Below, in pieces: positions 18,136 through 34,026 of a stretch of 64,000 nt of DNA. The stretch's first letter is position 1; the number at the start of each line of letters is the position of its first letter. A model generated the notes under the pieces. The model was not told the DNA's origin and ran no database searches. It saw only the letters and a program-made list of their open reading frames with translations. The DNA lies in assembly GCA_003104905.1 (NCBI GenBank), contig PQAS01000002.1:1-64000 (forward strand), given 5' to 3'. The translations under genes and the position numbers were made by a program. Source of the stretch: Candidatus Methanoperedentaceae archaeon (GTDB lineage: Archaea > Halobacteriota > Methanosarcinia > Methanosarcinales > Methanoperedenaceae).

Positions 18136-19158
18136 ATGGAATACTCGAAGAGACCTATAGAGGTGATGAAAACGAACGAAGATATACAGGCACTCAACAA
18201 GCAGGCGCTGCTTTATTCAAAAGACCTGGAAGCGATTGTCGAGGAAATGCACAGGGTAATAATCGGCCAGGAAAACGTTATTGAAAAACTTATCCTTGCA
18301 CTTGTTGCGGATGGACACGTGCTCCTTGAAGGCATGCCGGGTCTTGCAAAGACCTTAATGATAAAAACACTCTCAGATACTATCGAAGCTTCCTTCAAAC
18401 GCATACAGTTCACCCCTGACCTTCTCCCGGCAGATATTATGGGGACACGTATCTACAACCAGAACACCTGCCAGTTTTCAACACGAAAAGGTCCGATATT
18501 TGCTCATTTCATCCTTGCTGATGAAATAAACAGGGCCCCGCCAAAAGTCCAGAGCGCTCTTCTTGAGGCAATGCAGGAAAGGCAAGTCACCATATCGGAT
18601 GAGAGCCATCAGCTTGAAAAACCCTTTCTTGTGATGGCAACGCAGAATCCTGTAGAAACACAGGGAACATATGAACTGCCTGAAGCCCAGGTTGACCGCT
18701 TCATGTTCAAGATATTGCTGGATTATCCTACACAGAGGCAGGAACAGGAAATTATGAACATGGTCGCAGGTTCCGGATTGTCAAAGATCACAAATATCAT
18801 TTCCCCGCCCAGGATAATCGAGATCCAGAATTTCAATCATCGAATCTATATGGATGAAAAGATATCAAAATATATCACCGATATTGTTCAGGCCACAAGG
18901 GACCCGCAGCAATATGGTCTTGATTTAAAGGACTTCATCGAATACGGTGCATCCCCCCGCGCTTCCATAAACCTTGCACTTGGCGGCAAAGCAAGCGCTC
19001 TTTTTGCAGGAAGAGGCTATGTAATACCCGAAGACGTAAAAAGAATAGCAAGGGATGTGTTAAGGCACCGCATAATCATGACATATGAAGCGCTTGCCGA
19101 AGAGATGACCACGGATAAGATAATTGGTTCGATACTTGAAAAAGTGCCTGTTCCCTGA
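18136..19158 (+). CDS. moxR: MoxR-type AAA+ ATPase
   Basis: A 340-residue AAA+ ATPase of the MoxR group. Walker A is LLEGMPGLAKTLM (about residues 56-68) and Walker B is FILADEINRAPPKVQSALLEAMQE (about 124-147). Sensor 1 is in VMATQNPVE and the lid domain follows. MoxR proteins act as chaperones that assemble or activate metal- or cofactor-containing complexes together with VWA-domain partners. It is the first gene of a four-gene operon with DUF58, VWA and a BatD-like protein. An AT-rich TATA region about 20 bases upstream and no ribosome site suggest a leaderless start. Confidence 0.95.
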   Translation: MEYSKRPIEVMKTNEDIQALNKQALLYSKDLEAIVEEMHRVIIGQENVIEKLILALVADGHVLLEGMPGLAKTLMIKTLSDTIEASFKRIQFTPDLLPADIMGTRIYNQNTCQFSTRKGPIFAHFILADEINRAPPKVQSALLEAMQERQVTISDESHQLEKPFLVMATQNPVETQGTYELPEAQVDRFMFKILLDYPTQRQEQEIMNMVAGSGLSKITNIISPPRIIEIQNFNHRIYMDEKISKYITDIVQATRDPQQYGLDLKDFIEYGASPRASINLALGGKASALFAGRGYVIPEDVKRIARDVLRHRIIMTYEALAEEMTTDKIIGSILEKVPVP

Positions 19159-19172
19159 TAAGAGGTACGATC

Positions 19173-20060
19173 ATGGAACGTCCTACCACTTCAGAAATAA
19201 TATCCAGAGTAAGGCAGATAGAAATAAAGACAAACAGGCCCGTGGAAGGAATTATCAGCGGGGCTTATCTATCTGCATTTAAAGGAACAGGTATTGAATT
19301 TTCACAGGTGCGCGAATACCAGCCAGGGGATGATCCAAGGACAATTGACTGGAATGTGACGGCAAGGATGAACCACCCGTTTGTGAAAGAGTTCATTGAG
19401 GAGCGTGATCTTTGCATAGTTATCGTATTTGATATTTCCCGCTCATCAGAATTCGCAACGACAGGTTCCCTGAAAAAGTATGTCGGAATTGAGATTTGTG
19501 GTTCTCTTGCCATGTCTGCAATCAGGAACAATGATAAAGTGGGGCTCATGCTCACATCGGACATCGTTGAGAAATATATTCCTCCAAGGAAAGGGAAAAA
19601 CCAGGTGTTCAGGATAATAAGAGAAACTATTTTTCATGAGCCAAGGAATGCCGGAACAGACCTTTGCGTACCCCTTGTGAAACTTTCCAGGATACTTCGG
19701 AAAAAAAGTGTGATATTTGTGATTTCGGATTTCCAGGATGATCCGCAAAATCTAAAAAAGCCACTCCAGGTGCTCAGGAACCGGCATGACATCATAGCTA
19801 TAAAGCTATGGGATATCAGGGAACAGGAATTTCCTGATATCGGGCTTATCGAGCTTGAAGATGAGGAGACAGGGGAGCAGATACTTGCGGACACCACAGA
19901 TACAGGATTCAGGCTGCGCTTTGAGGAAATGGTCAAAGCCAGAAATAAGAGGTTATCAGAGGTCACAAAACGCCTGGAAATTGACCTGATAGAGATTTCG
20001 ACGGGGCAGGACTGGATCAAACCAATATTGAAATTTTTTAATATGAGGGTGAGAAGATGA
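19173..20060 (+). CDS. DUF58 protein of the MoxR system
   Basis: A 295-residue DUF58 protein. The family signature YQPGDDPRTIDWNVTAR (about 48-64) is followed by a VWA-like Rossmann part with a degenerate metal site (VIVFDISRSSEF). DUF58 proteins accompany MoxR and VWA proteins in nearly all lineages and are thought to work as adaptors in the same assembly. It is 14 bases downstream of moxR and overlaps the next gene by four bases. Confidence 0.92.
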   Translation: MERPTTSEIISRVRQIEIKTNRPVEGIISGAYLSAFKGTGIEFSQVREYQPGDDPRTIDWNVTARMNHPFVKEFIEERDLCIVIVFDISRSSEFATTGSLKKYVGIEICGSLAMSAIRNNDKVGLMLTSDIVEKYIPPRKGKNQVFRIIRETIFHEPRNAGTDLCVPLVKLSRILRKKSVIFVISDFQDDPQNLKKPLQVLRNRHDIIAIKLWDIREQEFPDIGLIELEDEETGEQILADTTDTGFRLRFEEMVKARNKRLSEVTKRLEIDLIEISTGQDWIKPILKFFNMRVRR

Positions 20061-20998
20061 ATTTTGAGAACCCGTCATGGTTTGCTGCTTTATTACTTCT
20101 CCCTGTTGTGTGGTATTTTTACCGGGAATCCATGAAAAAGAAGAAAGCTCTTGCCATCAAGTTCAGCAATATTTCACTTATCAAGGAAGCGGGAATTAAG
20201 AAATCAAACGCTAAGGACGTCCTCTTTTATTTGAATCTACTTTTACTGGTCTTGCTGATAGTCGCCCTTGCTGACCCCCATATACCTCTTAAACAGACCA
20301 AAGAAGGTGTAAACGTGGTAATGGTGATGGATGTATCCGGAAGTATGGCGGCCAGCGATTATAAGCCCACAAGGCTTGAGGCGGCAAAGGAAAGCGCGAA
20401 GATAATGGTAGATGAATTGAACAACAAGGACAATTCGGGGATTGTAATATTTTCAAGCGGCGCGACTACATCTGCGTATCTTTCGCCTTATAAGGATAAA
20501 GTGCTTGAAAAATTATCAGGGATAAAACAGACCGAAGGTGAGACTGCGTTAGGGGATGGTCTTGCGCTGGCGGTGGACATGGCTACATCGATCCCCAACA
20601 AAAAGAAAGTTATCATTCTCATGAGCGATGGCGTCAATAATGCCGGGATTATAAGCCCGGACGATGCCATTTCATTTGCAAAGACAAACAATATACAGGT
20701 CTATACTGTAGGAATAGGCTCGAATGAGAATGTCATCTTTGGTTATGACTTTCTCGGTCGTCCTGTGTATGCACAACTTGATGAGGCAACGCTGCAAAAA
20801 ATAGCACAGGAAACAAACGGCCAGTATTTCAAATCCGTGGATAGTTCAACACTTGAGAAAATATATAGCGAACTTCCTCAGAAAATCGAACGTGAGCCAG
20901 AGGATTCAAGCATTAAGGACTGGGTAATTATGTCCGCTATTGCGGTTCTCCTTATTCAATTGTACCTGAGGTTCGGAAGATACAGGATTCTGCCGTGA
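20057..20998 (+). CDS. Membrane-bound VWA-domain protein (BatA-like)
   Basis: A 313-residue protein with an N-terminal membrane helix (about 6-22), a second span (about 58-76), a VWA domain with intact MIDAS motif (VMDVSGSMAASD, about 94-105) and a C-terminal span (about 289-307). This is the Aerotolerance BatA layout. The metal-ion-dependent adhesion site implies binding of a partner, probably under MoxR control. The start overlaps the DUF58 stop (ATGA). Confidence 0.92.
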   Translation: MNFENPSWFAALLLLPVVWYFYRESMKKKKALAIKFSNISLIKEAGIKKSNAKDVLFYLNLLLLVLLIVALADPHIPLKQTKEGVNVVMVMDVSGSMAASDYKPTRLEAAKESAKIMVDELNNKDNSGIVIFSSGATTSAYLSPYKDKVLEKLSGIKQTEGETALGDGLALAVDMATSIPNKKKVIILMSDGVNNAGIISPDDAISFAKTNNIQVYTVGIGSNENVIFGYDFLGRPVYAQLDEATLQKIAQETNGQYFKSVDSSTLEKIYSELPQKIEREPEDSSIKDWVIMSAIAVLLIQLYLRFGRYRILP

Positions 20999-21007
20999 GG
21001 TGAGAAT

Positions 21008-22525
21008 ATGAAAAGATCAATGATAGTAACAATTTCAATTTGTCTCATAATAATATTTTCAGGCATAACATCTGCAAAACAACTGTCAGTCAAAAAGATC
21101 GTCAGCAACACTGACATAAGTACGGGAGACAGTGCCAATATTTCACTTGAATTTGAAAATCCTTTCAATAAATCCCTACCTGTGAAAATAGAGGATAATA
21201 ATGTCCTGGGGAATAACGGTCTTGAGATCCAGTGCTATGAATATGAACTTCCGGACAGGCCCCTGACTCTGGTTGGATACGATTTTCCGATACAGGCATA
21301 TTCCCCGGGGGAATTTACGCTTGACCCGGCAACTGTGACATACACAAATCCGGAAACAGGAACACAGGAATCCGTAAAGACACAGCCTGTTAAAATAGTG
21401 ATAAGGCAGGGTAGAGCAACAGGACAGCAGCAGGGGATCACGCAGATATACCAGTGCGGCGGCGTGAGCATGCGCAGCACTTCTGTCTCATCAAGCAGTT
21501 CTTCATCCGTATCAATAAGCAGCGGAAGCCAGCAGGTAAATCCGAATATCAATCCGCAGCCTGCTGATTCTCCTGAAAATATCCAGCAGGTGGGGCAGGA
21601 TATGCAGAATATTAAACAGCAGATGGAGCGCCAGCAGCAGGATAAGCAGAAGATGGAAGAAGAACTTAAAAGAAGAATCGAAAATAATGGTGAATTCCAA
21701 AACCTGAGTGAGGAGCTTCAAAAACAGGGATATGCACCTGATGGCCAGCAAATAAGGCCCGAATCCAACAATACCGGGAATTTTGACTACGGATTCAAAA
21801 AGGGTGAAGAGAATGCGAACATTAGCGGGAGGATGGACGCCGGGAAAATGGAAAACATCCGGGAACAGAGTACTGAAGATGTAAAGAAGCTGGAACAGTA
21901 TATCGAGAACAATGAAACGTTCAGGCAAATGCAGAATACGCTTTTAGATAAAGGGTATAATCTCTCCGGCAAGAAAATCGATCTTGAGCAAAATATCAGC
22001 AGTTTTCAATATTCATACAGCGACCAGCAGGGGAGGAATGCTTCAATCGAAGGGAATGTGACCGGCGCAGGTGAGATAAAAGATATTGCGCCAAAAGAAC
22101 CCGATCAGCCATACTGGATCATTGCTCTTCTTCTTATACTGTTGTCCGGGATTTATCTATATAATAAGTTCAGGAATAATTCGAGACCTTTTGAACCGGC
22201 GATGGAGACAATTCACATTGATCCAAAGGAGAACGCTCTTCTTCTGCTTGAGAAAGCGATAGGGATGTTCAATAGCGGTATGCATAGAGAGGCATATGTT
22301 GAAGCTTCAAATGCGGTTAGAGCCTATTTCAAGGGATCATCAGGAATACAGGAACTTACAAGCGATGAGATAATTAGGAGCATCCGGGGATCAAAGGAAA
22401 AAGGATATATTGAGGATGTAAGGGATTGTTTCATGCTCTGCGATCTTGTTAAATTTGCAAAATATGAACCCAACAGGGAGGATTTCAATCGTGTGGCGGA
22501 ACTTGCGAGGAGGATTATTGTCTGA
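21008..22525 (+). CDS. BatD-like exported protein with coiled coil
   Basis: A 505-residue last member of the MoxR operon. It has a signal peptide (about 5-23), a beta-sandwich BatD-like domain (about 24-135), a serine-rich linker (SVSSSSSSSVSISSGS), and a glutamine-rich coiled coil (about 185-230). Two similar segments follow, each with a RxENxxFQxLxxxLxxxGY pattern (about 230-265 and 300-330). A transmembrane helix lies near 364-384, followed by a cytoplasmic helical domain like the DUF4129 tail. The two repeated segments are not part of classical BatD. The gene ends 15 bases before a hairpin repeat. Confidence 0.75.
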   Translation: MKRSMIVTISICLIIIFSGITSAKQLSVKKIVSNTDISTGDSANISLEFENPFNKSLPVKIEDNNVLGNNGLEIQCYEYELPDRPLTLVGYDFPIQAYSPGEFTLDPATVTYTNPETGTQESVKTQPVKIVIRQGRATGQQQGITQIYQCGGVSMRSTSVSSSSSSSVSISSGSQQVNPNINPQPADSPENIQQVGQDMQNIKQQMERQQQDKQKMEEELKRRIENNGEFQNLSEELQKQGYAPDGQQIRPESNNTGNFDYGFKKGEENANISGRMDAGKMENIREQSTEDVKKLEQYIENNETFRQMQNTLLDKGYNLSGKKIDLEQNISSFQYSYSDQQGRNASIEGNVTGAGEIKDIAPKEPDQPYWIIALLLILLSGIYLYNKFRNNSRPFEPAMETIHIDPKENALLLLEKAIGMFNSGMHREAYVEASNAVRAYFKGSSGIQELTSDEIIRSIRGSKEKGYIEDVRDCFMLCDLVKFAKYEPNREDFNRVAELARRIIV

Positions 22526-22585: not shown

Positions 22586-23680
22586 TTATTGTTTTGCTGT
22601 TGTTGCTTTTCCTGTCGCATGGCAATCCGAACAGAATTTCGGCTGATGACAATCGCTGCATACTTTGCCAATTAAAACCTGCGACTTATGAGTATTTATC
22701 CAATCGCTTGGATGCTCACTCTTATGACAGGTAGCACATAGATTTTCCTTGATTTGTGGTTTATGTTCTACTTCAGAATGACAGTTATAGCATGCTATCT
22801 TATTATTTGTGACATGGTTTTTATGCACAAAATTAAAATCATCATACTTTTCCAGCCTTTCCGATTTGTAATGACATGAATTACATTTATCTTTGGGAAC
22901 AATATCATTTGCGCTCTTTGATATATTTAGATGGCATGTCAGGCAATTAGCTCCACGGCTTATGTGGCTTGTATGATCGAAATTTGTATAATTCCTTGGC
23001 GTTTCCTTCGGGGGACCATGACAGGACGGACAACCGGAAATCGAATTGTTACCCGGTACCTCCCTAAAATGGCAGGTAAAACATGTAGAGGTTGTGACCA
23101 CAATGTGACCTTTATCCTTTTGCTCCATATTAGGATGGCACTGGGCGCATGATGGATCTGATACCGATTGATGTTCTTTCATGCCGATAACAAGCATGGA
23201 ATGACAGCTTGTGCATGTTAATTGTATATCCCTGTTTGGTTTTAACAAATGGTTCTTATGACTGAAGTTGACACCTGTGAATGGAACATCCGTAGAAAAA
23301 ATACGATCTTCATGACATATCAGGCAGTTTTTATCCATGACTTTAGCATATAACTTGCCTGAATATTCTTCCACGGTGGTTTCATAACTATAGAATTGCA
23401 TAAGCCCATTTATCTTCCCTTTTACATGGCCTATTATTCCCGGTTCATAGTGGCATTCTACACATTTTACAGTAGTATGCGATGAAGATCTCCACGAATC
23501 GTAATATGGCCTCATTATATGACAATTCTTGCCGCAAAATGCCGGATTTTCAGTGATATCCAGCATTTTTGCTGAAATTACTAATGTAATTGAAAGCAAG
23601 ATAATCAATACAATAATGATAGGAAGTTTATATGTTGAAATCCTATGCTTAATAACATCTATAAGTGATATTTTGTCCAT
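22586..23680 (-). CDS. 13-haem-motif membrane-anchored c-type cytochrome
   Basis: The 364-residue protein has an N-terminal membrane anchor (about 18-37) followed by a NapC/NirT-like start and then haem motifs to the end. I count twelve CxxCH motifs (CVECH, CLICH, CTSCH, CAQCH, CFTCH, CPSCH, CLTCH, CNSCH, CYNCH, CATCH, CSDCH twice). The first site is CGKNCH, a CX3CH spacing. Many free histidines could give bis-histidine ligation. It would sit outside the membrane and pass electrons onward. It is the last gene of the operon, six bases after the preceding cytochrome, with GGTGAAGGGAC before its ATG. Confidence 0.92.
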   Translation of the reverse strand: MDKISLIDVIKHRISTYKLPIIIVLIILLSITLVISAKMLDITENPAFCGKNCHIMRPYYDSWRSSSHTTVKCVECHYEPGIIGHVKGKINGLMQFYSYETTVEEYSGKLYAKVMDKNCLICHEDRIFSTDVPFTGVNFSHKNHLLKPNRDIQLTCTSCHSMLVIGMKEHQSVSDPSCAQCHPNMEQKDKGHIVVTTSTCFTCHFREVPGNNSISGCPSCHGPPKETPRNYTNFDHTSHISRGANCLTCHLNISKSANDIVPKDKCNSCHYKSERLEKYDDFNFVHKNHVTNNKIACYNCHSEVEHKPQIKENLCATCHKSEHPSDWINTHKSQVLIGKVCSDCHQPKFCSDCHATGKATTAKQ

Positions 23681-23686
23681 GTCCCT

Positions 23687-24661
23687 TCACCGTTTTCTAA
23701 TAAGATATAATACTGCGAATATTCCCAGAACTAGAATTATCCCGGCTCCCGGAACAGAAGGTGCAGTTGGCTCAGTTTCAACTAATTTACCCTGCGCTTT
23801 CTTAGCTGAATCAATCCCGACCTGAACTTGCCTGTCAAAATCTTTTAAATTAAAACTGTGCCATAATGATGGAACATCCTTCATAATAGCTAATGCTTTA
23901 TCAAGATCATTTTGAGATGAAACAATATCCTTACCTTTTGCCTTTGCATCAGAGATAGAATCTCTTGCTTTGCGGATTTCTTCCTTTAATTCATCGGCTT
24001 TTTCAAGTCCGAATTTTGCATCCTTTGGAACATTTGCAGTTGAAACCTGGTCTTTTGCATTGTGGCAAACACTGCACAATGGTGTGATTTCGGATGCTTC
24101 CAATACTTTGAAACTGTGCGGTTGATGGCAATTTACACATGAAGGCGCACGCGATTCGGCTCTCAATCTTTGATAATGCATGGTATTTTTAAAATGATCC
24201 AATTCTGTTGCATGGCATTTTCCACATGTTTCAGGAATATTCTTAAAATAAATCGGACTTTCAGGACTACTCATGTTTTTCATAGTAGAATGAGCCCCTT
24301 CTATTGTATTTAAATCCGGATTGCCTCCGTGGCATGCATCACAGGTAACAGAATAGCTTGAATGACCCGAATCAGACCATTGCTGGAAATTATCTGAAGC
24401 TTTTTTTCTTATTATGTCTTCATGACATTCAAGTGAACAAGTTATATTTCTTTCAGTATGATTCAATCTAATATCATTGAATCTTAATTGCTCATCCGTA
24501 AAAGGTGATAAACTCTTATGGCAATTAATACATGAATTATTTAAAGCTTCAAAACTAGCTGCTCCAGCCGGAGCGATCAAGAAAATGAAGATTATTAATA
24601 ATCTTTGCGTAAATCTAAAACTATCCATATATGAACTTGATTTCTTATCTTTTGTAGACAT
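23687..24661 (-). CDS. Six-haem-motif cytochrome with C-terminal anchor
   Basis: The 324-residue exported protein has a signal sequence (about 19-35) and haem motifs CINCH, CSLECH (CX3CH), CDACH, CGKCH, CVNCH and CSVCH. After these come a helical haem-free region (about 225-290), a proline/threonine linker, and a PGAG-hydrophobic-RKR tail like archaeal PGF-type sorting signals. It is a paralogue of the protein at 27380-28348 with the same motif order. A 248-base gap with a hairpin separates it from nrfD-like, so it may have its own promoter. Confidence 0.9.
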   Translation of the reverse strand: MSTKDKKSSSYMDSFRFTQRLLIIFIFLIAPAGAASFEALNNSCINCHKSLSPFTDEQLRFNDIRLNHTERNITCSLECHEDIIRKKASDNFQQWSDSGHSSYSVTCDACHGGNPDLNTIEGAHSTMKNMSSPESPIYFKNIPETCGKCHATELDHFKNTMHYQRLRAESRAPSCVNCHQPHSFKVLEASEITPLCSVCHNAKDQVSTANVPKDAKFGLEKADELKEEIRKARDSISDAKAKGKDIVSSQNDLDKALAIMKDVPSLWHSFNLKDFDRQVQVGIDSAKKAQGKLVETEPTAPSVPGAGIILVLGIFAVLYLIRKR

Positions 24662-24853
24662 TTTTCCTTTTCCGCCGTTATTATGATTTAAATTAATATT
24701 TTTTAATGCCAGAACTCTGTACCCGTTTTTTATTCTGTTTTTCTTAATATTATTTGATGATTCTCTACAATAAAAAGTTTGCGATTATTTTAACATGATA
24801 ACTTTAAATCAAAATTGTTCAAAAAAGAAATTTTTTTTCTAATAAACATAAGA

Positions 24854-24879
24854 CACAGAAGCCTTTACTGGCATCTGTG
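24854..24879 (-). terminator. Hairpin after NrfD-like gene
   Basis: CACAGA-A-GCC and GGC-A-TCTGTG pair around a six-base loop. It lies about 30 bases downstream of the NrfD-like stop, in the 248-base gap before the next cytochrome. It may partially terminate or process the operon message. Confidence 0.5.
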
Positions 24880-24909
24880 CGTTTCATGAATATAGACTTA
24901 ACAAATTAA

Positions 24910-26079
24910 CTACGACGGTTCTTCTTCCATATCTTTCCACGGTGGCAGGATAGACGTTACAACCAGCAATATAATAAACGGAAGAATAAATATTATTAAA
25001 GCTGGTAAGACACCTTCCTGACTGAAGAAAACAGGTACGTAAGTTAGTGTTCCGCTCAGGCTTTTTGAAATTTCCTGCCCTCCGATTACTACATTCCATC
25101 TCATGGCAAATACACCTATTACCACAAAAATGGATGATATGGATATCATGTACAGTTTAAGAGTCTCACGGTTCTTCATTAAGCTTACCATAAGCAATAG
25201 TACAAAAGGTATGAATATGCCAAGTGTCAGTTGCACACCATAAAAAGTAAAGCCGATCTTATCTGAAAGGAGCCTGTTGATGATATCGATATCTTCACGT
25301 GAGGCATATTTCATGCTGACTATCTCAAGCAATTCCAATGTTACATCCAGGATCAAAAAAATCCACAGGTAATGTGCAAGTGATTGAAGACATTTATGAT
25401 CAATTACATGTTTGCGTATTTTCATTGCTGCAATATATAATAAGATCAATAGCGCTATCCCTGATACTATAGCCGACATAAGGAATATAATTGGCATAAG
25501 AGGGGTAGACCACCATGGATTTGCCTTGATACCACCGAATATAAAACCCACATAACCATGCAGGAATGCAGCCGAAGGTATACCGATTATGGCAAGTTTC
25601 CTGGCAAATTTTTCATCATCATGCAATGCTTTTTCCGAAATATCAAATGAAAACAGGGCAAGGCTTGAATATAATAATTCTTTCCATCCATGGGAACTAA
25701 GGGCCTTATTCACAATATCTTCCCTGAATGAAAGCCATATTTCTAGCACTACGATGGTCAGATAGAAGGAAAATATATAGCCAAAACCTGACATCGCAGA
25801 TGTTAGATGCGGAGTGAACATGATTTCAATACCACGCTCCGGTCGTCCGAGATGAACGAGCAGAGGCAGCATTGCAACAAGCAGGAATGACAATGCCGTA
25901 AGAAGTGCAAATCTTGCTACGGGCTTGATCTCCTTCTTGCCAAAAACATGATATAATGATGAGGCAATGAAAGCACCTGCTACCAGACCTGTAATATAAG
26001 GATACAATACTATCAATATGCTCCATTGTATTTCGGATTCATTGGGATAAACATAACCCCAGATCAGATTCTCTAACAT
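24910..26079 (-). CDS. NrfD/PsrC-type quinol-interacting membrane protein
   Basis: A 389-residue polytopic protein with about nine to ten hydrophobic helices and the NrfD/PsrC-type N-terminus (WSILIVLYPYITGLVAGAFIASSLYHVFG). Members of this family exchange electrons between the membrane quinone pool and a partner iron-sulfur subunit. Here the partner is the NrfC-like gene directly upstream, sharing one base (TAATG). No catalytic molybdopterin subunit is present, so the electron acceptor or donor is presumably the set of cytochromes in the same operon. Confidence 0.9.
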   Translation of the reverse strand: MLENLIWGYVYPNESEIQWSILIVLYPYITGLVAGAFIASSLYHVFGKKEIKPVARFALLTALSFLLVAMLPLLVHLGRPERGIEIMFTPHLTSAMSGFGYIFSFYLTIVVLEIWLSFREDIVNKALSSHGWKELLYSSLALFSFDISEKALHDDEKFARKLAIIGIPSAAFLHGYVGFIFGGIKANPWWSTPLMPIIFLMSAIVSGIALLILLYIAAMKIRKHVIDHKCLQSLAHYLWIFLILDVTLELLEIVSMKYASREDIDIINRLLSDKIGFTFYGVQLTLGIFIPFVLLLMVSLMKNRETLKLYMISISSIFVVIGVFAMRWNVVIGGQEISKSLSGTLTYVPVFFSQEGVLPALIIFILPFIILLVVTSILPPWKDMEEEPS

Positions 26080-26870
26080 TATTTCACTTCCCGGTCTAAA
26101 CCAATATAGAATACCTTGGGCTTTGTACCAAGGTCGGGTTTAAGAAGAGTGATTCTTTCTTCATCCATTATTTTCTTCACTTCGCTTTTATTATCCTTCA
26201 GGTCTCCGAATTTTCGTGCGCCTGTAGGGCATGCCTGAACACATGCCGGCAATAAACCTTTAGTAATTCTGTGATAACACCATGTGCATTTGTCTGCGGT
26301 TCCCTTCTCGGTATTAAAGTACCTGGCACCATATGGACATCCCTGTATACAATACCTGCAACCGATGCAATATTCATAATCCACAAGTACAACACCATCT
26401 TTTGTCTCATACGTTGCACCTACGGGACAAACCTGTACGCATGGAGCATTATCACAATGATTGCATATTTTCGGTACATAGAAAGCCTTTTTTACTTCTT
26501 CGGCGGGAATATCATCTACAAATCCTTCTATTCCCCCATCAGGTGAATCGATTACAACTTCTTCCTCAAAGGTTTCATTTATTGTTTTTTTCACCCGGTA
26601 TCTTTCAATCCATGTCCTGTAAACTTCTTCATCAAACGGCACCTTATTTTCCATTTTACATGCATTGGCGCACCTTCCGCAGCCTATGCATTTGCGTGTG
26701 TCCACCACATAACCCCAAAAGTGTTTCTCCCAATCATACCCGCCATTTTCAGGGGGATTTTCAGCCGCAATACCTTTAGTGAACATTGATTGTACGATCG
26801 CAGTTCCTGAAGCCGCACTTATTATGATTTTGCATCCGATCTTAGTAAAATCTCGTCTTGTAATATCCAT
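26079..26870 (-). CDS. NrfC-like four-cluster ferredoxin, Tat exported
   Basis: The 263-residue protein opens with a Tat-type motif (TRRDFTK) and hydrophobic segment. It then has four cysteine groups for [4Fe-4S] clusters: CIGCGRCANACKMENK, CNHCDNAPCVQVCP, CIGCRYCIQGCP and CTWCYHR...CVQACP. This is the electron-transfer subunit that partners NrfD/PsrC proteins. The Tat signal places it on the outer face of the membrane. It starts 12 bases after the four-haem cytochrome gene. Confidence 0.93.
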   Translation of the reverse strand: MDITRRDFTKIGCKIIISAASGTAIVQSMFTKGIAAENPPENGGYDWEKHFWGYVVDTRKCIGCGRCANACKMENKVPFDEEVYRTWIERYRVKKTINETFEEEVVIDSPDGGIEGFVDDIPAEEVKKAFYVPKICNHCDNAPCVQVCPVGATYETKDGVVLVDYEYCIGCRYCIQGCPYGARYFNTEKGTADKCTWCYHRITKGLLPACVQACPTGARKFGDLKDNKSEVKKIMDEERITLLKPDLGTKPKVFYIGLDREVK

Positions 26871-26882
26871 ATTCTACCTCCT

Positions 26883-27332
26883 TTAATCGAACCAGGGTTT
26901 ATGCGGATTATGACAATATACACATCTTAGATCCTCGCCATGAGCTCCTGGATCGATCTGCGGGAAGGCTTCAGGCCTTGATATTCGCTTGAAGTGGCAT
27001 TTACCGCAATAATCTCGTGAATCATTAGCCGGCATTAATGGTTCCCTTGCATCAAGAACATGTTTTTGCGCAGGACCATGACATGTTTCACAATTCACTG
27101 TCTTATGCCGGTCCTTTGCCCATACTGTATATATATTTTCATGACAGTTCTCTTCTCCACAGCTTGCAGAACCCCTATAATTTACAGTAAGATTTCTGAT
27201 TTCTTTTACCGAATCACCCCTGTACCATCCATATTGCCCGAATGATTCAGGAACAACCAGGGACCTTACAAAAATAAAAGCAATTATTATAAGAGCTAAT
27301 ATAGTAAAAGCTCTTTTTAAATGTGGCTGCAT
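26883..27332 (-). CDS. Small tetrahaem-type cytochrome with CX4CH site
   Basis: A 149-residue protein with an N-terminal membrane anchor or signal (about 8-26). Three CxxCH motifs are present (CETCH, CGKCH, CVYCH), and the first site is CGEENCH, a CX4CH spacing confirmed in the nucleotides. It lies between the first cytochrome and the NrfC-like gene, a position suited to receiving or giving electrons to the iron-sulfur subunit. AAGGTGAT precedes the ATG. Confidence 0.9.
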   Translation of the reverse strand: MQPHLKRAFTILALIIIAFIFVRSLVVPESFGQYGWYRGDSVKEIRNLTVNYRGSASCGEENCHENIYTVWAKDRHKTVNCETCHGPAQKHVLDAREPLMPANDSRDYCGKCHFKRISRPEAFPQIDPGAHGEDLRCVYCHNPHKPWFD

Positions 27333-27379
27333 TACTTATCACCTTTCCATGACAGGATATCGTTCATCATTTCCGGCCT

Positions 27380-28348
27380 TTACTTCTTTCTCAGAATATA
27401 GAATACGGCCATTAGCGAAATTAATCCGGTAATACCTATAAATCCCGGCACTCCAGGTGCTGCTGCGGTTTCAGTTGGCACAGGAGCGGATTTCACGAGG
27501 TCTTCAGCATCTTTTATCTCCGAATTCGCAGAATCTATTACATCCTCGAAATGAGTTAGATTGAATTCATGCCACATTGGCGCAAGCTCTCCAAGCGTTT
27601 TTAGTGCATTATCCGTATACTTTTCAGCCTGTGCAACATCAGTTCCATTTTTCTTTGCCCAGAAAATATCCTGTCTTGCATTATCAATATTGAATTTCAA
27701 TTTATTTACTTTTCTTAGCATATCTTCTGCTTTTAATGGTATGTCATACGGTGCTACTTTCTTATAGATAGAATGGCAGTTCCCGCAGGAATTCCTGAAA
27801 TCTTCAGGGTTAAGTACAGTGAAGGTATGAGGGTGATGGCATGTCGTGCATGTTGGAGCAAGCTGCAATGATTCAAGCTTCCGAAAATGCGTGCTATTCT
27901 CAAAATTATCCAGTTCTTGTGAATGGCATTTACCGCATGTCTTGGGAACATTGGTATAATAAACAGGACTTTCAGGGTCTGTAATATTCTTAAAATCTAT
28001 GTGCGCTTTTTCTTTGGTAGCCTGCTTCGGATCGCCTCCATGGCAGGCCTCGCATGTAACTCCCTTCAGAGCGTGAACCGATTCCGCCCATTGCTGGAAA
28101 TTAGCGGTCGCCAGCTGTCTTACCCTGTCTTCATGGCATTCCAGAGAACATTCGGCATTCCTTTCAAGATGCTGAATCCTTATCTGATTAAACCGTTTTT
28201 GTTCTTCAATAAATGGCGTCAAAGTCTTATGACAATCCACACATGAATTTTCAGAAGCATTCACATCAGGAAGAAATACCAAAATTCCTGTTAAAATTAA
28301 AAATACAATTAAGATTTTATCAAATGATATCATTCGCATTTTATTCAA
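27380..28348 (-). CDS. Six-haem-motif cytochrome with PGF-type tail
   Basis: The 322-residue first gene of the electron-transfer operon. A signal peptide (about 10-30) is followed by CVDCH, CSLECH (CX3CH), CEACH, CGKCH, CTTCH and CGNCH, then a helical haem-free domain. The C-terminus has a PGVPGF-hydrophobic-RKK tail, which is the arrangement of archaeosortase substrates. It is a close paralogue of 23687-24661, including the odd CX3CH site, so the two probably arose by duplication within the operon. It would be attached to the outer surface. Confidence 0.9.
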   Translation of the reverse strand: MNKMRMISFDKILIVFLILTGILVFLPDVNASENSCVDCHKTLTPFIEEQKRFNQIRIQHLERNAECSLECHEDRVRQLATANFQQWAESVHALKGVTCEACHGGDPKQATKEKAHIDFKNITDPESPVYYTNVPKTCGKCHSQELDNFENSTHFRKLESLQLAPTCTTCHHPHTFTVLNPEDFRNSCGNCHSIYKKVAPYDIPLKAEDMLRKVNKLKFNIDNARQDIFWAKKNGTDVAQAEKYTDNALKTLGELAPMWHEFNLTHFEDVIDSANSEIKDAEDLVKSAPVPTETAAAPGVPGFIGITGLISLMAVFYILRKK

Positions 28349-28517
28349 ACCTTCCGTTTTATATACTTACGTTTTGATTTATATCGTTTTAAAGGTATCG
28401 TTTTTTCTAATTTCAACTAACCCGTTATTTTCTTATTTATAACTTTTGGTTTCGTTTTTTCGGTGCAGAGTACGGATATTTTTTCGGATTATCCGGTTTC
28501 ATTTTTTCCAAATCATT

Positions 28518-30620: not shown

Positions 30621-30638
30621 ATGGATTATGGCATTTAA
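30621..30638 (+). other. Five-codon upstream frame overlapping the protease start
   Basis: AGGGAGAA is directly followed by ATG-GAT-TAT-GGC-ATT-TAA. This frame overlaps the likely start of the large metalloprotease at 30628. It could reduce or couple translation of the long gene, or the ribosome site could simply serve the second ATG. Confidence 0.35.
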
Positions 30639-33600
30639 TAAGCTAATTGGAAAAAAAGCATTATATCTTCTCATGACAGCTATATGCCTGGTAATATTGC
30701 TCGCCCCGAGCATTTATGCTGCACAAATCAGTCACATAGGTACGAATCAGAAAGTATTGGTCATTTGCGTAAAATGGAGTAATATATCAACAACCAGGAT
30801 GGCAAGCTGTTCTGATTGGGTCAGCGTTCTCAATAATGAAACAAATAATTTCTACAATCTTGCTACGTTCAGCCAGACAAATTTCATTTTTGAAACGCCC
30901 TCAGGTGGGCCTATAAATGGATGGTATGATCTGGGTTATCCTGTTGAAAATTATGGCTTCTGGACTACCGGGCAGGATGCCATAAGTCTAGCAGACCACG
31001 ATATCGATCTTGGTGGTTATAATAGAGTTTTTATTATCACCAACAACCCGGGTTTCGGAGGCCAGGGGGGCGGCCCATGGTGGTGGAAGGTCAATGAAAG
31101 CGCCGAAGCCACCTTCATGGAGGATGGCATATCAGTCGGGAAGCGATTCATGACACTTTCAATTATTAATGAATGGGCGGCACACAGCTTTGGTTATCCA
31201 TTTGATGAAGCGGCTTCTGTTGGTGCGCATGAGTTGGGCCATCAGTTGGGTCTTAGAACTCATTATGGCACCATATATTTCAATGGGCTTAGCCGCGATC
31301 CGATTGATCCGTGGGATATGATGGGACTAAGTCCGTCGCTAACTCATTTCATAGGGTGGTCAAAAGCAGAAAGGCAATGGATACCATCCGGACCTCGCAT
31401 CAATATTGTCGGCCCACCGGTTGTATCGGATATTGATGCAACGTTGACCCTTAATCCCCTGGAAGTCAATAGTGCAGGGATTCAGATAATCAAGATACCA
31501 TTTACTACAACAAATCCATTTATGGGATATGTTGTAGAAAACAGGAAAAATATAAATACAGACCAGTATCTTCCAGGTGAAGGAGTACTTGTTTCATTAG
31601 TGGATGAAAGTAAGAGTATCAGTCCTCCTCCCGTAATAGTAATGGAAAATCCGATTTATCCCGGGGATCTCAGTCGAGCCCCATTGAAAGCGGGTGAATC
31701 GTTCAATGACCCTGCACGTAACATAAGCGTTGGCATAGTCAGCCAATCCGGAAATAATTACAATGTAAGGATACAATATAAGCTTCCGCCTGGAGGCAGC
31801 CCTGATCCAATGATATTAGACTGGGGTGCGCCGCCATACGAAACAGCAGATATCTGGGTAGATAGTGAAAAAAATGGGTGGGGAACTTATAGATATACTG
31901 ACGGATCGGGCAATCCAGTAGGTAATGGTGATGATGCATGGGTCGGCAGGAACAACAGAATTTATGCTAAAGTGCACAATACGGGCACAGCTCCTGCGTC
32001 CAATGTCAGGGTTCAGGTATATTCCAATTCACCACCGGGCATGGGAGACGCCGGTGAAGACTGGGATTACCTTGGCACCATCGTATTTCCATATATTCCC
32101 GCCGGTGGATCAGCACAGGATTTTGTCATATGGAATCCCACCGTTGGAAGACATACATGTATCAAAGCCCAGATTCAACCATATCCAGGTGAATCAAGTG
32201 AATCCAATAATCATGCACAGGAAAATGTAGATCATTTTGACACAACAAGCGGCAGTCCTTTCCAACCTGTGGCACAGAATATAACAGTGTATAATCCATC
32301 CGATACCAACGATACGCCGGTCCATTTTAATGTCAGGGACATTCCCCCGGGATGGGCAGCAAGAGTAGATCCTGCTGATATGATCCTTCCGAAAGGAGGT
32401 AACAATACCGTGATCTTCGAAGTGTTTCCTTCCGGTCCGCCCGGTGCATCCCCGACAGGCAGTCAAATATCAGAACTTACCTTAAGAAGCTATACTTCAT
32501 TAAACCTGTCAAGAAATTCAATCCTGACTATTGCCAGAGATTTGAAATTCCATGTGTCTGAGACTTCCGAGGTCAGTTTCTATCCATCCTTGAATAAGAT
32601 AAGAGGGGCCGTTTCCAGGCTCATATCATTGAACAATTTGAGTGTGACAAAATGGGATGCGATGAACTTCCCTGCATTGCTGTATGACATAAACAATAAT
32701 AGATCAACCGAGACTTTGTATATCGACCAGGGAGCCTTGCGCAATAATAGAACTATTGCTAAAGAAAATCTCTGGTACAAGACAGGAAGAGCGGCTCAAA
32801 AATATAAAGTATTCAAAAATAAAAATCTTTCTGTTGAGAACGGTCTTGATAAGAACTTTAATCAGCAACCTTTTGGAGGATATTATGCTCTTGTAGGATT
32901 GTTCGGGGAACAATATGTTGCGTTAAATGGTAATGTCGGAAAGCTTTCAAAGCTTATTCTCGAGCAAGAGGATTTCGACCGGAAAGTTATGTCAGTAGGT
33001 GGATCGTGGGATATGGGAGATGGCTGGATCTTGAAAATACAGGCGGTGGATGCCAGAGCAAGCCCAAGAAATGTATGGTTCACCCTCACCAGAGACGGTG
33101 TCATACTTGATGAAAGGGTCGCCTCCCAGGGTGAGGTATATACTTTTTCACAGAATCTCTCTGATGAAAAGAATGTCCCGGTGTTTGTGACATATATTGA
33201 TGCGGTATTTGTGGGTTCGACCACAGATTTGGTTCAGCTCAAATATTCATGGTTGATCTCAAATTCGATCATGGAATTGAAGGCAGGGGATAGGTTTGGC
33301 ATATTGGAAGTTGTCAATGAATCCCAGAGCACTGGATTTACAGGTAAACCTATAATAGAAGCTTATATTCCCTTTTATGATACTTTTATTCCCATCGGAG
33401 GGGTTGAAGCATGGGTTCACCTGGTCAATCCCACGGATATTAATTGCAGAGTAAATCAAAAAGAAATTAGTCCCTACGTTAGTATTCAGGGCCGGCTTTC
33501 GCCGCCCATTGAAAATGCACTGATATCAGTAGAATTTACCCTGAAAAATATGCGTGAAGTTAAGTTTGCCACAACTAATTCGATGGGGATTTATTCTATC

Positions 33601-34026
33601 AGGTACCTGCCAAAAGATAATGGTGTATGGGAATCACAGGCATTCTATAGCGGAGATAATAAGTATGAAGCGGCAGAATCCAATGTTTGCAGATTTGAGG
33701 AAAAAGATCTTTCAAGCATAAGTGGCCGGAAGTTGAATGACACGAACGGAAATCAGAAAGTCGATGAAGGTGAGATGGGACTTCCCAAATGGACAATACA
33801 ACTAACAAAACCTGATGGAACAACTGTGACTACAAATACCGGCAGGAATGGCAGTTATGTTTTCAAAGGGCTTCTTGCAGGCAGTTATGTTGTGGAAGAG
33901 AAACCGAAAAAAGGGTGGATACAAACATATCCTCCCCGAGGAAAATATATTGTAAATATTTCAACTGGAAAGGATCTGATAGATGTAAATTTCCTGAATC
34001 ATAGAGAAAGTATCAGAGTAACATAA
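30628..34026 (+). CDS. Large secreted M6-like metalloprotease
   Basis: The 1132-residue protein has a signal peptide (about 10-31) and a metalloprotease domain with HELGHQLGLRTHYG, the zinc site, at about residues 201-214, as in immune-inhibitor-A (M6) peptidases. A CARDB-like beta domain follows (about 390-540), then further beta domains. A final SdrD/Cna-B-like domain (about 1030-1120) starts SGRKLNDTNGNQKVDEGE, a calcium-binding-type loop. No C-terminal anchor is visible. The ATG at 30628 gives the proper signal peptide. It converges on the secretion-motor operon with nine bases between stops. Confidence 0.85.
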   Translation: MAFNKLIGKKALYLLMTAICLVILLAPSIYAAQISHIGTNQKVLVICVKWSNISTTRMASCSDWVSVLNNETNNFYNLATFSQTNFIFETPSGGPINGWYDLGYPVENYGFWTTGQDAISLADHDIDLGGYNRVFIITNNPGFGGQGGGPWWWKVNESAEATFMEDGISVGKRFMTLSIINEWAAHSFGYPFDEAASVGAHELGHQLGLRTHYGTIYFNGLSRDPIDPWDMMGLSPSLTHFIGWSKAERQWIPSGPRINIVGPPVVSDIDATLTLNPLEVNSAGIQIIKIPFTTTNPFMGYVVENRKNINTDQYLPGEGVLVSLVDESKSISPPPVIVMENPIYPGDLSRAPLKAGESFNDPARNISVGIVSQSGNNYNVRIQYKLPPGGSPDPMILDWGAPPYETADIWVDSEKNGWGTYRYTDGSGNPVGNGDDAWVGRNNRIYAKVHNTGTAPASNVRVQVYSNSPPGMGDAGEDWDYLGTIVFPYIPAGGSAQDFVIWNPTVGRHTCIKAQIQPYPGESSESNNHAQENVDHFDTTSGSPFQPVAQNITVYNPSDTNDTPVHFNVRDIPPGWAARVDPADMILPKGGNNTVIFEVFPSGPPGASPTGSQISELTLRSYTSLNLSRNSILTIARDLKFHVSETSEVSFYPSLNKIRGAVSRLISLNNLSVTKWDAMNFPALLYDINNNRSTETLYIDQGALRNNRTIAKENLWYKTGRAAQKYKVFKNKNLSVENGLDKNFNQQPFGGYYALVGLFGEQYVALNGNVGKLSKLILEQEDFDRKVMSVGGSWDMGDGWILKIQAVDARASPRNVWFTLTRDGVILDERVASQGEVYTFSQNLSDEKNVPVFVTYIDAVFVGSTTDLVQLKYSWLISNSIMELKAGDRFGILEVVNESQSTGFTGKPIIEAYIPFYDTFIPIGGVEAWVHLVNPTDINCRVNQKEISPYVSIQGRLSPPIENALISVEFTLKNMREVKFATTNSMGIYSIRYLPKDNGVWESQAFYSGDNKYEAAESNVCRFEEKDLSSISGRKLNDTNGNQKVDEGEMGLPKWTIQLTKPDGTTVTTNTGRNGSYVFKGLLAGSYVVEEKPKKGWIQTYPPRGKYIVNISTGKDLIDVNFLNHRESIRVT

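What the first reader, a model, noticed from the sequence alone, without database searches (positions are those of the whole stretch)
22586..28348. Six-gene NrfC/NrfD-multihaem operon without a catalytic subunit
The sequence shows six leftward genes: six-haem, four-haem, Tat-exported four-cluster ferredoxin, NrfD, six-haem and 13-haem proteins. NrfCD modules normally serve a terminal reductase such as NrfA, Psr or a molybdoenzyme, but none is encoded here. Two sortase-tailed cytochromes and a NapC-like anchored one suggest a chain from the quinone pool to the cell surface. I infer a methanotroph extracellular electron conduit. The exact composition may be a new complex type.
Basis: partly seen in the sequence, partly recalled or inferred. 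Interest (0 to 1): 0.75.

Follow-up and report, generated by a model that had tools for sequence, protein, structure and literature searches.

The report
Methanoperedens quinol-to-cytochrome electron export genes
These six genes encode a membrane machine that probably passes electrons from a methane-eating archaeon's membrane pool to outward-facing haem proteins; this type of gene cluster has already been described in this family, though how its parts are shared and rearranged between species adds useful detail.

Summary
Six leftward genes encode 6-haem, 4-haem, Tat-exported four-cluster ferredoxin, NrfD, 6-haem and 13-haem proteins, with no catalytic reductase. In relatives no catalytic gene is conserved beside it. 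The host genome has no NrfA and only one strong molybdoenzyme hit, which shows no export signal. So it is not a reductase operon missing a subunit.

It is a known kind: the NrfD-type menaquinone:cytochrome c oxidoreductase cluster of Methanoperedenaceae (Leu 2020, mBio and ISME J; Zhang 2023). Its core, multihaem-NrfC-NrfD, is intact in 53 of 59 examined bacterial loci and resembles Geobacter Cbc4 (CbcSTU).

Corrections and additions:
- It is probably two units, ABCD and EF. In nine genomes EF lies on another contig, in some with a conserved promoter-like block.
- The 6-haem proteins belong to a four-member family; the other two sit beside Rieske/cytochrome b genes.
- In two other archaea of the phylum, NrfCD, 6-haem and Rieske/b genes lie in one array.
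- Stand-alone paralogues of the 13-haem NrfH-like protein lie beside S-layer-domain cytochromes.

Most likely function: menaquinol oxidation feeding outward cytochromes. No biochemistry was possible, and structure predictions were too poor to use.

The parts
27380..28339 (-). A: exported 6-haem c-type cytochrome (5 CxxCH + 1 CX3CH), 319 aa from ATG (TTG at 28348 also possible), C-terminal PGF + hydrophobic + basic tail
   Evidence: PGF tail in 28 of 29 orthologues
26883..27332 (-). B: N-terminally anchored 4-haem cytochrome (3 CxxCH + 1 CX4CH), 149 aa; homologue is a 4-10 haem protein in bacteria
26079..26870 (-). C: NrfC-like, Tat-exported four [4Fe-4S] cluster protein, 263 aa; just above NCBIfam DsrO cut-off (203.4 vs 200); best solved-structure match is the NrfC-type chain 2vpw_B
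24910..26079 (-). D: NrfD-like integral membrane protein, 389 aa; start overlaps the end of C; R327 invariant in 66 distant homologues
24662..24909 (.). 248-nt gap between D and E; separates two tightly spaced gene groups
24770..24780 (-). Promoter-like AAACTTTTTAT block about 119 nt upstream of E; kept upstream of E in several relatives, including some where E-F is on another contig
23687..24661 (-). E: exported 6-haem cytochrome, 324 aa, paralogue of A (43% identity)
22586..23680 (-). F: 13-haem cytochrome (12 CxxCH + 1 CX3CH), 364 aa; N-terminal NrfH-like quinol dehydrogenase region with CGKNCHIM motif, then polyhaem arm
28434..28442 (-). TATA-like TTATAAATA about 103 nt upstream of A's ATG, aligned with ATATAAATA in near relatives

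Best explanation
The locus encodes a menaquinol:cytochrome c oxidoreductase without a classical catalytic subunit. NrfD (D) oxidises menaquinol on the outer face of the membrane; electrons pass through the four [4Fe-4S] clusters of C to the anchored tetrahaem B and then to the six-haem acceptor A. The adjacent E-F pair is a second, separable unit in which F, an NrfH/NapC-type quinol dehydrogenase with a long haem arm, feeds E or surface cytochromes. Electrons finally leave through S-layer and extracellular cytochromes to metals, electrodes or partners. Shown here: gene content, haem motifs, conservation, absence of a catalytic partner, separability of E-F, sharing of the six-haem family with the Rieske/b cluster. 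Inferred: direction of flow, order of carriers, proton translocation by NrfD, final acceptor.
For: NrfD in 31 of 34 family genomes and all 21 near-complete ones; in 29 relatives it is a 78-99% identical orthologue. A-B-C-D contiguous wherever the contig allows, with no conserved catalytic neighbour. B-C-D intact in 53 of 59 bacterial loci across many phyla, including Thermincola, Anaeromyxobacter and Melioribacter; frequent families among large flanking genes are cytochromes, cytochrome b and histidine kinases, with no molybdoenzyme or NrfA among the 25 listed. Own genome lacks NrfA and its one strong molybdoenzyme hit shows no Tat signal and sits in a histidine-kinase cluster. The six-haem family's other two members sit directly upstream of Rieske, cytochrome b and subunit IV, and in other archaea six-haem, Rieske/b and B-C-D genes lie in one array. 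In Bacteroidota/Ignavibacteria the order is B-C-D-Rieske-cytochrome b-multihaem-NapC. Lone F paralogues lie beside S-layer-domain cytochromes. Literature: such clusters are named MK:cytochrome c oxidoreductases and are expressed or differentially transcribed with Mn and Fe (PMC7327174, PMC7082337, PMC10542353).
Against: No biochemistry exists for this complex and no subunit interaction was tested. NrfCD complexes can run either way (Qrc and Nhc reduce quinone), so direction is not given by sequence. Structure predictions were too poor to use (mean pLDDT 61.5 for A, 36.8 for F). The link between the published 'Group 1' locus tags and this cluster is inferred from the pattern of tag numbers, not from sequence.
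Confidence: 0.8

Rival explanations
1. NrfCD serves a terminal reductase encoded elsewhere in the genome (NrfA or a Psr/Ttr-type molybdoenzyme), with the cytochromes as carriers.
For: NrfCD modules classically serve such enzymes; NrfA is present in four relatives with strong hits.
Against: No NrfA in the host genome and only 5 of 34 family genomes match, against 31 of 34 for this NrfD. The one strong molybdopterin hit is a protein without a Tat signal in a histidine-kinase cluster; two weaker hits (447 and 440 aa frames) were not characterised.
Confidence: 0.05
2. The complex runs in reverse, taking electrons from extracellular cytochromes into the quinone pool, as Qrc and Nhc do.
For: Qrc and Nhc are NrfD complexes that reduce quinone from cytochrome c3 (PMC8076601); sequence does not fix direction.
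Against: Methane oxidation makes menaquinol that must be re-oxidised; published transcription is high with soluble iron or Mn as acceptor; the shared six-haem family also sits with a Rieske/cytochrome b complex, a type that oxidises quinol.
Confidence: 0.1
3. All six proteins form one stable complex from one transcript, a distinctive new complex type.
For: All six genes are co-linear in 21 of the roughly 29 family loci read, including the sister genus (the D-E and E-F gaps could be measured in 21).
Against: E-F is on another contig in nine genomes, always as a pair; the D-E gap is large; a conserved promoter-like block precedes E in several clades even after relocation.
Confidence: 0.15

Closest known systems
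Methanoperedenaceae NrfD-type menaquinone:cytochrome c oxidoreductase clusters (Leu et al. 2020, PMC7327174; PMC7082337)
   Same: Same family; NrfD-like protein + 4Fe-4S ferredoxin + multihaem cytochromes, including '3- and 6-heme' ones (B has 3 strict CxxCH); no catalytic subunit.
   Different: The passages read do not describe the 13-haem NrfH-like protein, the separable E-F unit or the link of the six-haem family to the bc cluster; supplements could not be read, so these may be partly recorded there.
Geobacter Cbc4 (CbcSTU)
   Same: Three-part cytochrome c + FeS protein + membrane protein, called menaquinol:ferricytochrome c oxidoreductase (PMC11434368); CbcT is called orthologous to DsrO there, and C here just passes the DsrO cut-off.
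   Different: Here two six-haem and one 13-haem proteins are added; direct orthology to G. sulfurreducens genes was not tested.
Nhc and Qrc complexes of sulfate reducers
   Same: NrfD + FeS protein + multihaem cytochrome exchanging electrons between quinone and cytochrome c.
   Different: They reduce quinone from cytochrome c3; Qrc has QrcB; C and D are far below the QrcC/QrcD cut-offs.
NrfH / CymA / NapC-type quinol dehydrogenases (for F)
   Same: N-terminal anchor and NrfH-like region with a Met after the first haem motif.
   Different: F carries about nine further haems and scores half the NrfH cut-off.
Noncanonical Rieske/cytochrome b cluster of Methanoperedens (Arshad et al. 2015, PMC4683180)
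   Same: Its two multihaem cytochromes appear to be members of the same six-haem family (host copy).
   Different: Quinol is oxidised by Rieske/cytochrome b instead of NrfD.

Membership tests
Methanoperedenaceae NrfD-type MK:cytochrome c oxidoreductase | NrfD-like protein adjacent to 4Fe-4S ferredoxin and multihaem cytochromes | tested here: met
Methanoperedenaceae NrfD-type MK:cytochrome c oxidoreductase | Conserved across the family | tested here: met
   NrfD in 31 of 34 genomes, 21 of 21 near-complete
Methanoperedenaceae NrfD-type MK:cytochrome c oxidoreductase | Menaquinol oxidation | not testable with these tools
   No enzyme assay; literature calls it putative
Cbc4 / CbcSTU | Three-gene cytochrome-FeS-membrane module without catalytic subunit | tested here: met
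   B-C-D order in 53 of 59 bacterial loci and in the family
Cbc4 / CbcSTU | Orthology to G. sulfurreducens cbcSTU | not tested
   No named Geobacter genome among fetched loci
NrfABCD nitrite reductase | NrfA present | tested here: not met
   None beside the locus or in the host genome
NrfABCD nitrite reductase | NrfC and NrfD equivalog cut-offs | tested here: not met
   166 of 377.6 and 65.9 of 347.6 bits
Psr/Ttr/Arr molybdoenzymes | Molybdopterin subunit adjacent | tested here: not met
   None in the window neighbourhood or near in the host genome; none among frequent neighbours of bacterial homologues
DsrMKJOP | DsrO cut-off for C | tested here: met
   203.4 vs 200, marginal
DsrMKJOP | DsrP cut-off for D | tested here: not met
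   51.6 of 350 bits
Qrc | QrcC and QrcD cut-offs | tested here: not met
   125.3 of 400 and 23.4 of 570 bits
NrfH quinol dehydrogenase (protein F) | NrfH equivalog cut-off | tested here: not met
   67.3 of 134.2 bits, residues 21-161
NrfH quinol dehydrogenase (protein F) | N-terminal anchor and CxxCHxM-type first haem | tested here: met
   CGKNCHIM (CX3CHxM form) invariant in alignment A5; match to NrfH 2j7a_C at 3.9e-4
PGF-CTERM / archaeosortase A substrate (protein A) | PGF + hydrophobic stretch + basic end | tested here: met
   28 of 29 A orthologues, only 7 of 30 for E
PGF-CTERM / archaeosortase A substrate (protein A) | Curated CTERM model cut-off | tested here: not met
   Best 15.6 of 24 bits, to a different CTERM model; the archaeosortase gene itself is in all 34 genomes

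The most novel reading that the evidence does not exclude
The locus holds two independent quinol-oxidising entry points, an NrfCD type (ABCD) and an NrfH-polyhaem type (EF), that together with the Rieske/b complex converge on one family of exchangeable six-haem acceptors. This would be a modular hub letting Methanoperedens swap the quinol oxidase according to acceptor potential while keeping the outward wiring, with F-type proteins connecting to S-layer cytochromes.
Probability: 0.3. Interest if true: 0.55.

Novelty: already known. Interest (0 to 1): 0.35.

Why it matters
How anaerobic methanotrophs move electrons from the membrane to the outside is a central open question in methane cycling. 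This cluster is present in every near-complete Methanoperedenaceae genome examined, unlike the patchy NrfA, so it is a strong candidate for a core route out of the quinone pool. The shared six-haem family and the S-layer neighbours of F's paralogues give specific partners to test.

Tried and rejected
Missing catalytic subunit: searched neighbours in about 29 family loci and 59 bacterial loci, plus NrfA and molybdopterin in the host genome; rejected. DsrMKJOP: C passes the DsrO cut-off marginally but D fails DsrP; rejected. Structure prediction of A (32-row alignment) and F (14-row alignment) gave low confidence; the fold search with A had no match at E <= 0.001, only insignificant HAO/MccA entries in the list, so fold was not used. 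The NrfD profile found no solved-structure chain by sequence. Viral contigs: no relatives of the six-haem or 13-haem proteins. The family tree shows A, E and the two bc-linked proteins as four well-supported groups, but their order at the base is not resolved.

Full report
Observation. Six minus-strand ORFs fill 22586-28348. In order of transcription they are A (6 haems), B (4), C (NrfC-like), D (NrfD), E (6) and F (13). Strict CxxCH counts are 5, 3, 0, 0, 5 and 12, and each cytochrome adds one CX3CH or CX4CH motif. Shuffles give almost none, and the variant motifs are conserved in orthologues. Pfam and NCBIfam confirm NrfD, the four-cluster ferredoxin and an NrfH-like start of F; solved structures place C nearest the NrfC-type chain 2vpw_B and F's start near NrfH.

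Host. The nearest named record is Candidatus Methanoperedens (NrfD 99% identical). NrfD is found in 31 of 34 family genomes and in all 21 near-complete ones. A-B-C-D are contiguous wherever the contig allows, with flanking genes that differ between genomes.

Catalytic subunit. None is conserved beside the cluster in relatives. Among 59 bacterial homologous loci, 53 keep B-C-D; 66 large flanking proteins gave other multihaem cytochromes, cytochrome b and histidine kinases as the frequent families, with no molybdoenzyme or NrfA among the 25 listed. The host genome has no NrfA. Its one strong molybdopterin hit lacks a Tat signal and sits in a histidine-kinase cluster; two weaker hits were not characterised.

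Two units. A-B-C-D gaps are -4 to 70 nt, E-F has a median of 8 nt, and D-E is 99-473 nt. In nine genomes E-F is on a different contig from ABCD, or on a contig where no ABCD was found, always as a pair. A block (AAACTTTTTAT or AAGCTATTTAT) about 101-120 nt upstream of E is kept in several clades, including relocated copies; in other clades it was not found, so a shared transcript remains possible there.

Shared six-haem family. Most genomes carry four copies: A, E and a tandem pair elsewhere. In the host the pair lies directly upstream of a Rieske protein, cytochrome b and subunit IV, matching the noncanonical complex described by Arshad 2015. A tree gives four well-supported groups. Of 393 genomes sampled across the phylum, the six-haem proteins were found outside this family in two. 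There the order is six-haem, 2-haem, small protein, Rieske, cytochrome b, subunit IV, B, C, D in one (L183), and B, C, D, two polyhaem, two six-haem, 2-haem, small protein, Rieske in the other (L181). In Bacteroidota/Ignavibacteria, B-C-D is followed by Rieske, cytochrome b, a nine-haem and a NapC-type protein. The modules therefore recur together, which fits a quinol-to-cytochrome system.

F. Stand-alone F paralogues (69-70% identical) lie divergently near S-layer-domain 12-haem cytochromes in L079, L080 and L082, and near a related gene in L083 (the Pfam S-layer domain was tested for the first three). This suggests, by neighbourhood only, that F-type proteins feed S-layer cytochromes.

Mechanism. 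NrfD oxidises menaquinol; electrons pass C to B to A and outward; E-F is a second route. R327 of D, invariant in 66 homologues, may correspond to the proton-gating arginine proposed for NrfD proteins; that equivalence is inferred from position near the end of the NrfD model and was not aligned. Direction, order and proton pumping are inferred.

Known status. Leu 2020 lists NrfD + 4Fe-4S + multihaem clusters as menaquinone:cytochrome c oxidoreductases of this family and reports high expression of one with Mn. Zhang 2023 reports a four-cytochrome cluster (tags 02260, 02261, 02264, 02265) highest with soluble iron; the two-gene gap fits A, B, [C, D], E, F, whose order is intact in the ANME-2d type genome (L102/L054), but identity was not checked by sequence. 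Cbc4 of Geobacter is the closest named bacterial analogue.

Limits. One session note guessed Archaeoglobi for them; that guess was not verified.

Noticed in passing
L079, L080, L082, L083 (G005, G022, G030): Lone paralogues of F lie divergently beside a 216-238 aa protein (DUF5667 in the one tested) and S-layer-domain 12-haem cytochromes, in two loci followed by a 16-haem anchored cytochrome.
   Followed up: partly
L064 (G000:C44): Second NrfD locus in the host genome: 7-haem protein, ferredoxin with C-terminal anchor and a 422-aa NrfD, again with no catalytic gene beside it.
   Followed up: partly
L034, L041, L044, L053, L055, L073, L078: Downstream of F on the other strand lie a membrane protein of about 250 aa (cytochrome b-like by eye) and a 7-haem protein, resembling another published oxidoreductase group.
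   Followed up: no
window 18136-22525 (+): MoxR-like ATPase, DUF58-like, von Willebrand A-like and a further membrane protein in a row, converging on F; read by eye, not scanned.
   Followed up: no
window 30628-34026 (+): 1132-aa secreted protein that looks like an M6-type metalloprotease with a C-terminal Sdr-like repeat; read by eye, not scanned.
   Followed up: no
L040 7393-10530, L045: 16-haem cytochrome of about 1000 aa close to the ABCD unit in two genomes where E-F is not adjacent.
   Followed up: no
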